34,107 nucleotides of DNA from Planctomycetota bacterium (GTDB lineage: Bacteria; Planctomycetota; Planctomycetia; Gemmatales; Gemmataceae): positions 1-34,107 of the forward strand of contig JAFKJJ010000548.1 of the NCBI GenBank assembly GCA_017306025.1, written 5' to 3'. Made by a program: the position numbers and the translations under genes. Positions 1 through 20,263 of the stretch are shown here, one piece after another. Below the pieces are notes generated by a model. That model saw only the letters and a program-made list of their open reading frames with translations. It ran no database searches and was not told the DNA's origin. Positions within the stretch are counted from its first letter, which is position 1; the number at the start of each line of letters is the position of its first letter.

Positions 1-553
1 GGACGACCACGCCCGCCGCGGTCCGCGCGTCGATCGCGCCGCCGGAAAGGATGCCCAGCGACGTCGCGTCCGGGAGGTCCGCGGCGGCGAACTCGTCGGT
101 CGTCTGGTTAAGGTTCAGCCCGATGCCGGCGACGGTTGTGAGCGCGTTGCCGGTCCCGCTCTGCTCGATGAGGATGCCGCACACCTTTTTGCCTCGAACG
201 AGCAGATCGTTTGGCCACTTGATGCGCGCCTGAACGCCGGTAAGCGCGAGGACCGCCTCCGCGACCGACACCGCGGCCCACGCGGTGAGGACCACCGGCC
301 GGCGCAGTTCCGCCGGCGGGCGCAGCACAACGGACATCAGAAGCGAGCTGCCCGGCCGGCTCTGCCAGACGCGGCCGTACTGTCCGCGGCCGGCGGTCTG
401 CTGGTCGGCGATCAGAACCAGGCCGTCTGTGTCGGGCTCGGCACGCGCGAGTTCGGCGCCGCGCGTGTTGGTGCTGTCGACGTGGTCGTACACGAGGACG
501 CGGCGGCCGATCCGTTCCGTGTCGAAGTGCCAGGTCTCGCGCGGGGTGAACAT
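1..553 (-). CDS. birA: Biotin--[acetyl-CoA-carboxylase] ligase, 3' end cut by the window
   Basis: Activates biotin to biotinyl-AMP and attaches it to the biotin carboxyl carrier protein of acetyl-CoA carboxylase in the cytoplasm. About 184 residues are visible, translated from the ATG whose complement lies at 551-553. The BirA/LplA catalytic signatures appear in order: DHVDSTNT near residue 24, QTAGRGQYGRVW near 52, KWPNDLLVRGKKVCGILIE near 113 and GIGLNLNQ near 145. No N-terminal helix-turn-helix precedes the catalytic domain, so this is the monofunctional ligase type and not the BirA repressor type. It starts 5 bp after the nadC stop, so the two are almost certainly cotranscribed. The C-terminal SH3-like domain lies beyond the left edge. 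Confidence 0.93.
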   Translation of the reverse strand, partial: MFTPRETWHFDTERIGRRVLVYDHVDSTNTRGAELARAEPDTDGLVLIADQQTAGRGQYGRVWQSRPGSSLLMSVVLRPPAELRRPVVLTAWAAVSVAEAVLALTGVQARIKWPNDLLVRGKKVCGILIEQSGTGNALTTVAGIGLNLNQTTDEFAAADLPDATSLGILSGGAIDARTAAGVVV

Positions 554-16085: not shown

Positions 16086-16778
16086 TCACCCCTTGCCCAA
16101 GAGCAGATCGACGACCCAACACCCGTGGACGTGCGCGAGTGACGTATCGCGGCAGTGCGAGAGCACGTCTTCGTTGATGCCGCCGGCGTCCTGGAGCGTG
16201 TCGGCGAGGATCGGCATTCGGTCGAAAGCGCGTTCGTTGTAAATGCCGCGCGCGAGGGCGAGCATGTCGGAGGTGAGCCACGCACGATCGAGCGCGACGG
16301 GATGAAATGGATTACCGAAAATGTCGCGGAGAAAACGGACTTGAGAGAACGATTCCGCCGCACGATCCGGTGTTGCTGCGGCGGCTTGGTTTGCGGCACC
16401 CACCATGCCATTCGCAAGCGAATAGCCGATTCCGCTGGAATCGGTTTTATGTGTGGCGAGCGACATCACCGCCGAAGCCGCGAGAAGCAGTGGTTCACGC
16501 TCCCATCGGAGGCCGACACCGGTTGCGCTTCGGAGATCTTCAAACGCAGCCTCAGAGCGAATGGCAGCCACGCCCATCTCGGTTTTGCCGACCGATCCCT
16601 CCGTATACTCCTCGACCACTTCAACGGCGCGGCGGCTGCGCACATCGCGCAAGAGTCGCTCGATGGACTGGCAGCATGCGACGCCGAAAAGCCGCAGTTT
16701 GCGAGGGCTCGCGCCCGCGCCGAGGTAGCCCAACAGTGCTTCTGTATCGAACGAGCCAAGCCACTCTTCTTCCGTCAC
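16086..16778 (-). CDS. Gemmata-type paralogous family protein, copy 1
   Basis: A 230-aa cytoplasmic protein of unknown function from a family that I recognise as expanded in Gemmata genomes. The N-terminus is MTEEEWLGSFDTEALLGYL with SPRKLRLFGVACCQSIERL; the middle is Ala-rich helical and variable; the C-terminal third has FLRDIFGNPFHPV, LARGIYNERAFDRMPILADT, LQDAGG, VLSHCR and GCWVVDLLLGKG. It starts at a GTG (16776-16778) just 4 nt after the DUF1501 stop, whose end region (TTGGGGTGA) can act as its ribosome binding site, so the two are probably translationally coupled. A frameshifted second copy lies at 19063-19842. Confidence 0.85.
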   Translation of the reverse strand: MTEEEWLGSFDTEALLGYLGAGASPRKLRLFGVACCQSIERLLRDVRSRRAVEVVEEYTEGSVGKTEMGVAAIRSEAAFEDLRSATGVGLRWEREPLLLAASAVMSLATHKTDSSGIGYSLANGMVGAANQAAAATPDRAAESFSQVRFLRDIFGNPFHPVALDRAWLTSDMLALARGIYNERAFDRMPILADTLQDAGGINEDVLSHCRDTSLAHVHGCWVVDLLLGKG

Positions 16779-19062: not shown

Positions 19063-19842
19063 CTATCCGCGGCCCGCCGGACCGCAGAGGGGAGGATACC
19101 GGAGCGGGCGAGCACCGGACACGGTGACGCGGGCGCCGGGCGCGCCGTGCTCACTTCTTGCCGAGCACCTGGTCGACCAGCACCCGCGGACGTGCGGCCC
19201 CGACCCGCGACAGTGGCTCAACACTTCGTCGGAGTCGCACCCCGCGTCCTGAAGGGCGTCGGCCAGGATGGGCATCGCGGAGAACTCGCGCGACTCGTAC
19301 ATCTGCCGGGCAAGGGTAAGGGCGGTGCCGGTGCGCCACGCAGGGGAGAAGGTGACGGGGCGGAACGGATTGCTGAAGATCTCGCGAACGAGCGCGGCCT
19401 GATGAGCGAGTTCGGCCCGATGCACGGCGGTCACCGCGTCGCGATCGTTTTCGCTGTTTCCCCAGCCCCGCGACTCCCGGGCGATCATGACGAATCCCAC
19501 CGCCGCACTCCTCGCGGCCGACGATGCGGCCGAAGCGGCGTCCCGCTCGATCGTCGCGTAACCGGCGTACAGCGCACAGGCGAATGAGGAATACTCCCCG
19601 ACCCCCCACTCGTTCGCACGCGCCGCGTCCACCTCCTCGGGGGCCGCGCATCCCTCGGCGAAGGCTTCCGCGAGAACGACCTGCGGGTGCATCTTCTCGC
19701 CACGGCACTCTTCCGCCGCACCCCAAATGCGACGCGCGCAACTACAGGCCAACAGGCGAAGCTTCCGGTCGCTGGCCGTTCCTCGAAGGTGCCCGAGGAG
19801 GGGCTCCGGATCGACACACGTCAGCCACTCCGCTTCGGTCAT
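19063..19842 (-). pseudogene. Gemmata-type paralogous family protein, copy 2, C-terminal frameshift
   Basis: Second member of the family seen at 16086-16778. The ATG at 19842 has GGAGGG 6 nt upstream. MTEAEWLTCVDPEPLLGHL and SDRKLRLLACSCARRIWG open the protein; LVREIFSNPFRPV, MYESREFSAMPILADALQDA, VLSHCR and GPHVRGCW follow. After the Trp at 19177-19179 the frame changes: as written it continues 38 residues as Arg/Gly-rich noise to 19063, whereas a shifted frame reads VDQVLGKK and stops at 19151-19153, exactly the family ending. A deletion of one (or four) bases near 19176 explains this. The protein is otherwise complete, so it may still function with an altered tail, or the shift may be a sequencing error. 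Confidence 0.75.
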
Positions 19843-19934
19843 CGGTCGCCCTCCGTGGCCCCAGCATGACCGATCCGCGGCCGGGTGCAAGCCCCGCCCC
19901 TTGCGTGGCGCCCGCGCGCCGGCTACTCTGCTCG

Positions 19935-20184
19935 GTGTTCCCGCGGTCGGGTTTAGCTCGTCGCACTGCGACGGGACGATGCTGCGTCGTCCGAGCACCT
20001 GCCACCGCACCCCGCGCGGGGAGGGCTGTTCCAGCACCGCTTCCGGCCACGGAGTATTCCGTTAACGGAATTGCTGGGGCCGTGCCGTCGGTCGTCACGT
20101 AATTCCGTTAACGGAATACTCCGTGGCCGGCGGTGCCGTGAGCCCTCCGCGCATCAGGACGAGAAGTAGACACCGCGGGAACAC
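19935..20184. mobile_element. 250-bp nested palindrome, MITE-like
   Basis: The outer ends are 13-bp perfect inverted repeats, GTGTTCCCGCGGT (19935-19947) and its complement (20172-20184). Near the centre lie 30-bp perfect inverted arms (20043-20072 and 20101-20130), each containing the palindrome TTCCGTTAACGGAA, separated by 28 bp. Between outer and inner arms the halves also show imperfect complementarity (left GCGCGG...AGGGCT and right AGCCCT...CCGCGC; CTCGTC blocks). There is no ORF inside. The whole reads as a hairpin-forming non-autonomous element or a structured RNA gene in the 580-bp gene-free stretch 19843-20422. No clear target-site duplication was seen. Confidence 0.55.
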
Positions 20185-20186
20185 GA

Positions 20187-20211
20187 GCGGGCCGGGGTAA
20201 TCCCGGCCCGC
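20187..20211. terminator. Perfect 10-bp hairpin next to the palindromic element
   Basis: GCGGGCCGGG (20187-20196) and CCCGGCCCGC (20202-20211) pair perfectly around GTAAT, followed on the plus strand by GTCGTTTCG. It is 2 bp outside the nested palindrome. No plus-strand gene ends nearby, so it may belong to the element or to a lost gene. Confidence 0.45.
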
Positions 20212-20263
20212 GTCGTTTCGCGTGGTGAGCGAGTGCCGCCCCGTGTCACTCGACCGGTTCGGT

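What the first reader, a model, noticed from the sequence alone, without database searches (positions are those of the whole stretch)
19935..20211. Nested palindromic element with 13-bp ends and 30-bp inner arms
A 250-bp gene-free unit has perfect terminal inverted repeats, 30-bp perfect internal arms each containing a 14-bp palindrome with GTTAAC, and imperfect complementarity between. A perfect 10-bp hairpin follows 2 bp outside. This suggests a non-autonomous transposable element or a large structured RNA, next to a frameshifted paralog and a repeated 22-mer.
Basis: seen in the sequence. Interest (0 to 1): 0.6.

Follow-up and report, generated by a model that had tools for sequence, protein, structure and literature searches.

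The report
Dispersed retron RNA with swappable stem
The palindromic element is one of about twenty scattered copies of a retron RNA gene (the template a bacterial reverse transcriptase copies into a small DNA) in a Gemmata genome; every copy keeps the same scaffold but carries a different 29-base-pair stem, and whole stems are replaced and reused between copies, which suggests that one retron enzyme serves a changeable repertoire of DNA hairpins.

Summary
It is a standalone retron msr-msd gene. The 13-bp ends are a1/a2; after a1 comes GTTTA|G, and before a2 TAGAC; a three-way junction and the 30-bp msd hairpin lie between. A promoter-like site precedes it, and the 'extra' 10-bp hairpin looks like a terminator.

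The own genome (a Gemmata MAG) has 21 copies and two reverse transcriptases, both best matching retron type XIII. In 17 of 19 genus members there are 7-37 copies, and exactly those 17 carry a full RT_XIII. Copies of the same RNA sit at the head of the type XIII operon (HEAT-ARM, HEAT-ARM, SWIM, RT, about 12.5 kb); in two outside genomes it is the only copy found.

Across copies, scaffold and length (220 nt) are nearly constant, while the 29-bp stem is hypervariable, almost always perfectly paired, and enriched in dyad symmetry (z 10-15). Between two close genomes, orthologous loci have either identical stems or wholly replaced ones inside 92-98% identical 5' scaffolds. The same stem recurs at different loci.

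Best reading: one RT/effector set serves in trans a repertoire of msDNAs with exchangeable, operator-like stems, probably baits. msDNA synthesis and bait function are inferred.

The parts
19901..19929 (+). promoter-like TTGCGT - 17 nt - TACTCT, ending 5 nt before a1
   Evidence: TTGNNN-16..19-TANNNT in the 80 nt upstream of 59/142 copies, against 2/140 in a control stretch further upstream
19935..19947 (+). a1, outer 5' arm (GTGTTCCCGCGGT)
   Evidence: covaries with a2 across copies
19951..19956 (+). GTTTA|G: end of the a1 helix (GTTTA pairs with TAGAC 20167-20171) and G19956, the putative 2'-5' priming guanosine (AGC)
   Evidence: near-invariant in the alignments; role by analogy with Ec86 (recalled)
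19956..19996 (+). msr three-way junction: GCTC 19956-19959/GAGC 19993-19996; stem 1 19960-19964/19968-19972; stem 2 19974-19981/19985-19992 (loop CTG; TTG in most copies)
   Evidence: stems 1 and 2 show changes on both sides with pairing kept (AU/GC/CG at columns 27-41)
20015..20040 (+). conserved 5' strand of the msd base helix (..CGGGGAGGGCTGTTCCAGCACCGC), paired with 20130-20151
20043..20072 (+). msd 5' arm, hypervariable, with dyad ATTCCGTTAACGGAAT
20073..20100 (+). msd apex (conserved as CTGGAACAACC..GGTTCC in most copies, divergent here)
20101..20130 (+). msd 3' arm, perfect complement of the 5' arm
20172..20184 (+). a2, outer 3' arm
20187..20219 (+). intrinsic-terminator-like hairpin (10 bp) with downstream TCGTTTC
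   Evidence: stem >=7 bp plus >=4 T in 50% of copies near the 3' end, against 0.7% in a control stretch
19066..19842 (-). divergent neighbour, MTEAEWL paralogous family; not thought to belong to the retron
   Evidence: such a gene lies beside only 10 of 184 copies; the family has many paralogs per genome

Best explanation
The element is a free-standing gene for a retron msr-msd RNA. SHOWN by sequence: it has promoter- and terminator-like signals, retron anatomy (a1/a2, conserved AGC after a1, msr stem-loops, long msd hairpin), about twenty relatives in the same genome, and one relative at the head of the type XIII retron operon (HEAT-ARM, HEAT-ARM, SWIM, RT). INFERRED: it is transcribed alone, recognised in trans by the type XIII RT through the conserved scaffold, primed from the 2'-OH of G19956 and copied into an msDNA whose duplex is the 30-bp stem with the dyad ATTCCGTTAACGGAAT. 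The copies differ almost only in that stem, the stems are operator-like, and whole stems are replaced while scaffold and locus stay; so the most likely role is a repertoire of msDNA baits: each displays another binding site for a dimeric DNA-binding or DNA-modifying protein, probably of phages, and loss or capture of a bait releases the shared HEAT-ARM/SWIM effectors. Stems seem to move between copies as cassettes, perhaps by recombination through the shared scaffold, possibly with msDNA as donor. The confidence given is for the trans-served retron RNA with exchangeable stems; for the bait function alone I would say about 0.5.
For: 21 matches to model R1 in the own genome. Only two RVT_1 genes there, both best RT_XIII (E 1e-158 and 1e-160), related to Ec86 RT, with NAxxH, YADD and VTG motifs. 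All 17 element-bearing genus members have full RT_XIII; the two without elements (G011, G017) do not (1/171 by chance). R1, built only from own-genome copies, finds the operon copies at 124-134 bits in five other genus genomes, 127 in G028 and 91 in G053; operon identity; in the own genome, copy C697 precedes HEAT-ARM. msd arms: 96.8% of cells paired vs 47% shuffled and 32-43% slid; 1421 of 2755 cells changed on both sides. a1/a2 covariation. Dyads: longest inverted repeat 5.37 vs 3.68 +/- 0.11 (mono) and 4.12 +/- 0.12 (dinucleotide) over 68 unlike arms. Orthologous loci with replaced arms; the same arm at different loci.
Against: No transcript, msDNA or phage data. Trans use of the RT is inferred. 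A second RT class (e.g. L031) has its own different RNA just upstream and could serve some copies. Dyads might arise from foldback mutation instead of selection; within-arm compensatory change is only weakly supported (15 of 19 double changes keep the pair, but rows are not independent). The one arm tested, the window's, has no longer match elsewhere in its own genome, and I did not find the source of any arm. The recognised targets are unknown.
Confidence: 0.8

Rival explanations
1. Non-autonomous transposable element (MITE-like) mobilised by a transposase that recognises the terminal repeats.
For: Inverted ends, multiple dispersed copies, palindromic architecture.
Against: Ends are not shared between copies but covary within a copy. 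The most conserved parts are internal RNA loops and helices. Promoter and terminator signals are attached. Presence tracks a retron RT. A copy heads the retron operon.
Confidence: 0.04
2. Passive retro-copies or decaying duplicates of the operon's msr-msd, as proposed for Nannocystis Ne160 repeats, with no function in trans.
For: Precedent in the literature (Lampson & Rice 1997, cited in PMC6868368); some copies are truncated (C18, C543); no protein family is tied to the copies.
Against: Most copies keep 29 perfect stem pairs despite unrelated sequence, constant length, promoter and terminator; many loci are kept between species.
Confidence: 0.08
3. A multicopy retron RNA whose stem diversity and dyads come from mutational processes (foldback or template switching on a long hairpin), with no bait function; the msDNA stem need only be double-stranded.
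For: Long hairpins are known sites of template-switch mutation, which can make both arms complementary at once and create internal palindromes (general knowledge).
Against: Identical 28-nt arms recur at unrelated loci and in different species, which local mutation does not give; replacement is confined to the two arms.
Confidence: 0.25
4. A structured RNA family unrelated to the reverse transcriptase that happens to co-occur with it.
For: No direct biochemical link.
Against: The same RNA heads the RT_XIII operon in seven genomes inspected, including one of another genus and one of another family; co-occurrence in the genus is exact; retron anatomy.
Confidence: 0.03

Closest known systems
Retron type XIII (HEAT-ARM / SWIM / RT, as modelled in PADLOC-DB)
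   Same: RT and all three accessory proteins match the type XIII profiles (E from 5e-189 to 0 for the accessory proteins, 6e-158 for the RT); the same RNA lies at the head of that operon.
   Different: The window copy has no RT near it; the genus carries 7-37 dispersed copies with different msd stems; in the operon the RNA lies about 12.5 kb from the RT.
Retron-Nex1 (Ne160) of Nannocystis exedens
   Same: Several msr/msd repeats without an RT within a kilobase (PMC6868368).
   Different: There read as possible repeated duplication or retrotransposition; here the copies are structurally intact, differ specifically in the stem, and turn over at fixed loci. Relationship of the two retrons not tested.
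Retron Ec86 (Eco1) msr-msd
   Same: a1/a2 ends, AGC right after a1, a stem-loop like GGATGTTG...CATCC, long msd hairpin (Ec86 RNA recalled, not fetched); the Ec86 RT is related to the own-genome RT (E 4e-37).
   Different: One cis copy next to the RT, different effector, no variable stem repertoire.
Diversity-generating retroelements
   Same: RT-bearing system with a variable sequence inside a conserved frame (analogy only).
   Different: No protein target; adenine mutagenesis was not examined; the RTs here are of retron type.

Membership tests
Retron msr-msd RNA | Outer inverted repeats a1/a2 enclosing msr and msd | tested here: met
   covariation against swapped partners
Retron msr-msd RNA | Conserved guanosine (AGC) just inside a1 as priming site | tested here: met
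   Sequence conserved in nearly all copies; priming itself not tested
Retron msr-msd RNA | msr stem-loops followed by a long msd hairpin | tested here: met
Retron msr-msd RNA | Retron RT encoded next to or in one operon with the RNA | tested here: not met
   The window copy has no RT beside it (both own-genome RTs lie on other contigs); met for the operon copies
Retron msr-msd RNA | Production of msDNA (2'-5' branched RNA-DNA) | not testable with these tools
   needs nucleic acid from cells
Retron type XIII | RT of clade XIII with retron motifs (NAxxH, YADD, VTG) | tested here: met
Retron type XIII | HEAT-ARM and SWIM accessory proteins | tested here: met
   (G002 operon); in the own genome HEAT-ARM follows copy C697 and a SWIM-like ORF precedes the C247 RT (by eye)
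Rfam families | match above the gathering score | tested here: not met
   none; the best weak match is a microRNA model, as a long perfect hairpin tends to give
MITE / transposable element | terminal inverted repeats shared among copies | tested here: not met
MITE / transposable element | empty sites with target duplication in relatives | tested here: inconclusive
   two joined-flank searches gave no clean empty site

The most novel reading that the evidence does not exclude
Gemmata carries a retron-based variable repertoire: a single RT/effector operon reads 7-37 chromosomal bait genes whose 29-bp operator-like stems are replaced as cassettes and copied between loci, possibly by the msDNA itself acting as donor in natural retron recombineering, so the defence can change the set of phage proteins it senses.
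Probability: 0.35. Interest if true: 0.95.

Novelty: new variant of a known kind. Interest (0 to 1): 0.85.

Why it matters
Retrons are understood as one RNA, one RT, one effector. A genus-wide system in which one RT seems to serve dozens of RNAs differing only in the msDNA stem would be a retron with a repertoire. It offers a natural experiment on what the msDNA stem recognises, an open question for most retrons, and a ready set of about 130 distinct arm groups on a fixed scaffold. Stem replacement within 92-98% identical 5' scaffolds also raises the possibility that msDNA rewrites chromosomal copies in nature. Gemmata genomes with the system include public, named strains (e.g. Gemmata sp. IIL30), so it can be tested directly.

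Tried and rejected
Transposon reading rejected because the ends covary instead of being shared. Rfam: nothing above threshold. Integron attC-like site considered from anatomy only and dropped when retron anatomy and RT co-occurrence appeared. Dedicated partner gene: the MTEAEWL family beside the window copy looked promising but flanks only 10 of 184 copies and has many paralogs. Empty sites: no clean one found; the window's GDSL neighbour has at best a 60% identical relative in the genus (G016) with no copy beside it. Viral carriage of the scaffold: no exact match of a 22-mer in viral contigs. Matching the arms to phage genomes was not attempted: Gemmata phages are presumably poorly covered and 29-mers give little power. 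Literature: no paper held pairs Gemmata with retrons; the type XIII description (10.1093/nar/gkaa1149) is not held, so whether the operon RNA is already described could not be checked. The phylum survey scored only ten candidates per genome and is a weak negative.

Full report
WHAT IS THERE. Ends 19935-19947/20172-20184 (13 bp) and arms 20043-20072/20101-20130 (30 bp) are perfect; the outside hairpin is 20187-20196/20202-20211. RNA folding is far beyond shuffles on both strands (z -10.6 and -11.1). No Rfam family reaches its threshold.

COPIES. A BLAST of the 250 bp against the own genome (a 6.64 Mb assembly in 707 contigs, 82% complete) gives many further diverged places. I aligned 15 own-genome copies with the variable hairpin cut down, found a consensus fold with changes on both sides, and built model R1. 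R1 finds 21 copies in the own genome. Most copies hold the same total length: 131 of 145 extracted copies are 217-222 nt from GTTTA to TAAAC.

RETRON ANATOMY. The outer repeats end in GTTTA|GC on the 5' side and GAAG|TARAC on the 3' side; these two pair, and the outer arms continue the helix. That is the layout of retron a1/a2 with the priming G directly inside a1 (Ec86, from memory). Then come a three-way junction with two small hairpins, a conserved base helix and one long hairpin. Across copies the outer arms covary: at least 8 consecutive Watson-Crick pairs in 47% of 129 copies, against 4.6% when partners are swapped between copies. The window copy has TTGCGT-17-TACTCT just before a1 and a GC hairpin with T-rich tail after a2; such signals are enriched at the copies (59/142 vs 2/140 upstream; 50% vs 0.7% downstream).

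THE ENZYME. The own genome has exactly two RVT_1 reverse transcriptases. Both carry retron motifs, match retron RTs in NCBIfam, and have RT_XIII of PADLOC as best family; the closest solved structure of the one tested is Ec86 RT. Among 19 genomes of the genus, 17 have 7-37 R1 matches, and precisely these 17 have full-length RT_XIII (E below 1e-150). G011 has no RT_XIII match and G017 only a weak one (7e-44), and both have no element. Outside the genus only G028 (another genus) and G053 (another family) had one match each in that survey. In those two, and in the five genus genomes inspected, a copy lies at the head of a cluster that in G002 was identified as HEAT-ARM_XIII, HEAT-ARM_XIII, SWIM_XIII, RT_XIII, spanning about 12.5 kb. 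R1 was built from own-genome copies only, nearly all of them dispersed, so the 91-134 bits of the operon copies in other genomes are an independent link. In the own genome the operon copy is C697:77-325, followed by the HEAT-ARM gene; the window copy is a dispersed one. A second RT class has a different RNA just upstream, with a weak R1 score (31.5 bits in L031) and also a long perfect stem.

THE VARIABLE STEM. On 95 non-redundant 220-nt copies the two arms pair in 96.8% of cells, against 47% with shuffled partners and 32-43% when slid by one or two positions; 1421 of 2755 cells are changed on both sides. So pairing is kept while sequence is free. The arms are not random: 68 arms less than 60% alike have a longest internal inverted repeat of 5.37 bp on average, against 3.68 +/- 0.11 for shuffled arms and 4.12 +/- 0.12 for dinucleotide shuffles. 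Many look like operators, e.g. GATCTGGTACCAGATC, CCTCGAAGTACTTCGAGG, and in the window ATTCCGTTAACGGAAT.

STEM REPLACEMENT. Orthologous loci could be recognised by their flanks. In the closest pair, G007 and G009 (37 and 33 matches), about 13 loci have the same or nearly the same arm. At least four further loci with both flanks homologous (86-96%) have unrelated arms, as does the operon copy itself; several more are supported by one flank (a further two-flank case, L283/L305, is left out because the G009 copy has an unusual length). Position by position, replacement covers the two arms only: in G7_L277/G9_L266 the 5' scaffold is 97% identical, both arms 41%, apex 85%, 3' scaffold 95%; in the operon pair G7_L274/G9_L249 the values are 98%, 38%, 85% and 90%. 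Identical arms occur at different loci: CCGCGGGGCCTGCAATTCTTACTGCAGG at two loci of G009 and one of G007, CCGGAAATATCCGGGTACCTGTATTCGG at two loci of G007; related arms recur in several genomes, including the window's arm and one in G001 (L070) at an unrelated locus. This is cassette-like turnover, not point mutation.

MECHANISM. Shown: structure, covariation, co-occurrence with the RT, operon linkage, stem replacement. Inferred from retron biology: separate transcription, recognition by the type XIII RT in trans, 2'-5' priming, msDNA with a duplex stem. Inferred with less certainty: the stem is bait for a dimeric DNA-binding or DNA-modifying protein, in line with known retrons in which phage proteins act on msDNA (general knowledge), and loss or capture of the bait frees the HEAT-ARM/SWIM effectors. 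How stems move is unknown; recombination through the shared scaffold is the simplest way, and msDNA as donor is an attractive possibility.

LIMITS. No expression or msDNA data. Copy numbers are from capped candidate lists and may be low. The type XIII literature is not held, so the operon RNA may already be described; the dispersed, stem-swapping repertoire was not found in the papers held. The closest precedent is Ne160 of Nannocystis (PMC6868368).

Noticed in passing
window 19066-19842(-) and 16089-16778(-): Paralogous proteins starting MTEAEWL..., no Pfam or NCBIfam match, with many paralogs sharing a conserved start region in Gemmata genomes; occasionally divergent from a retron RNA copy (10 of 184).
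   Followed up: partly
L031:490-730, L114:1040-1330, L116:1960-2230: A second class of RT_XIII-like retron RT has its own RNA directly upstream, different in scaffold but also with a long perfect stem containing dyads (e.g. GGTCGAATTCGACC).
   Followed up: partly
L007 around 1735-1935 (G000:C521): A 3' half-copy follows a full copy; its stem arm is the palindrome GGTCCGGTCACTCCGTGACCGG, which also appears downstream of other copies.
   Followed up: no
L033 (G000:C151), L051-L058, L124, L016: Miniature copies (about 110-160 nt) with the scaffold but a very short msd stem or almost none.
   Followed up: no
G000:C200:6160-6644 and G000:C642:2309-4181: Copies arranged in tandem on one strand, about 270 bp and 1.67 kb apart.
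   Followed up: no
L024 (G000:C200): A copy with a large extra hairpin inserted in msr stem 1.
   Followed up: no
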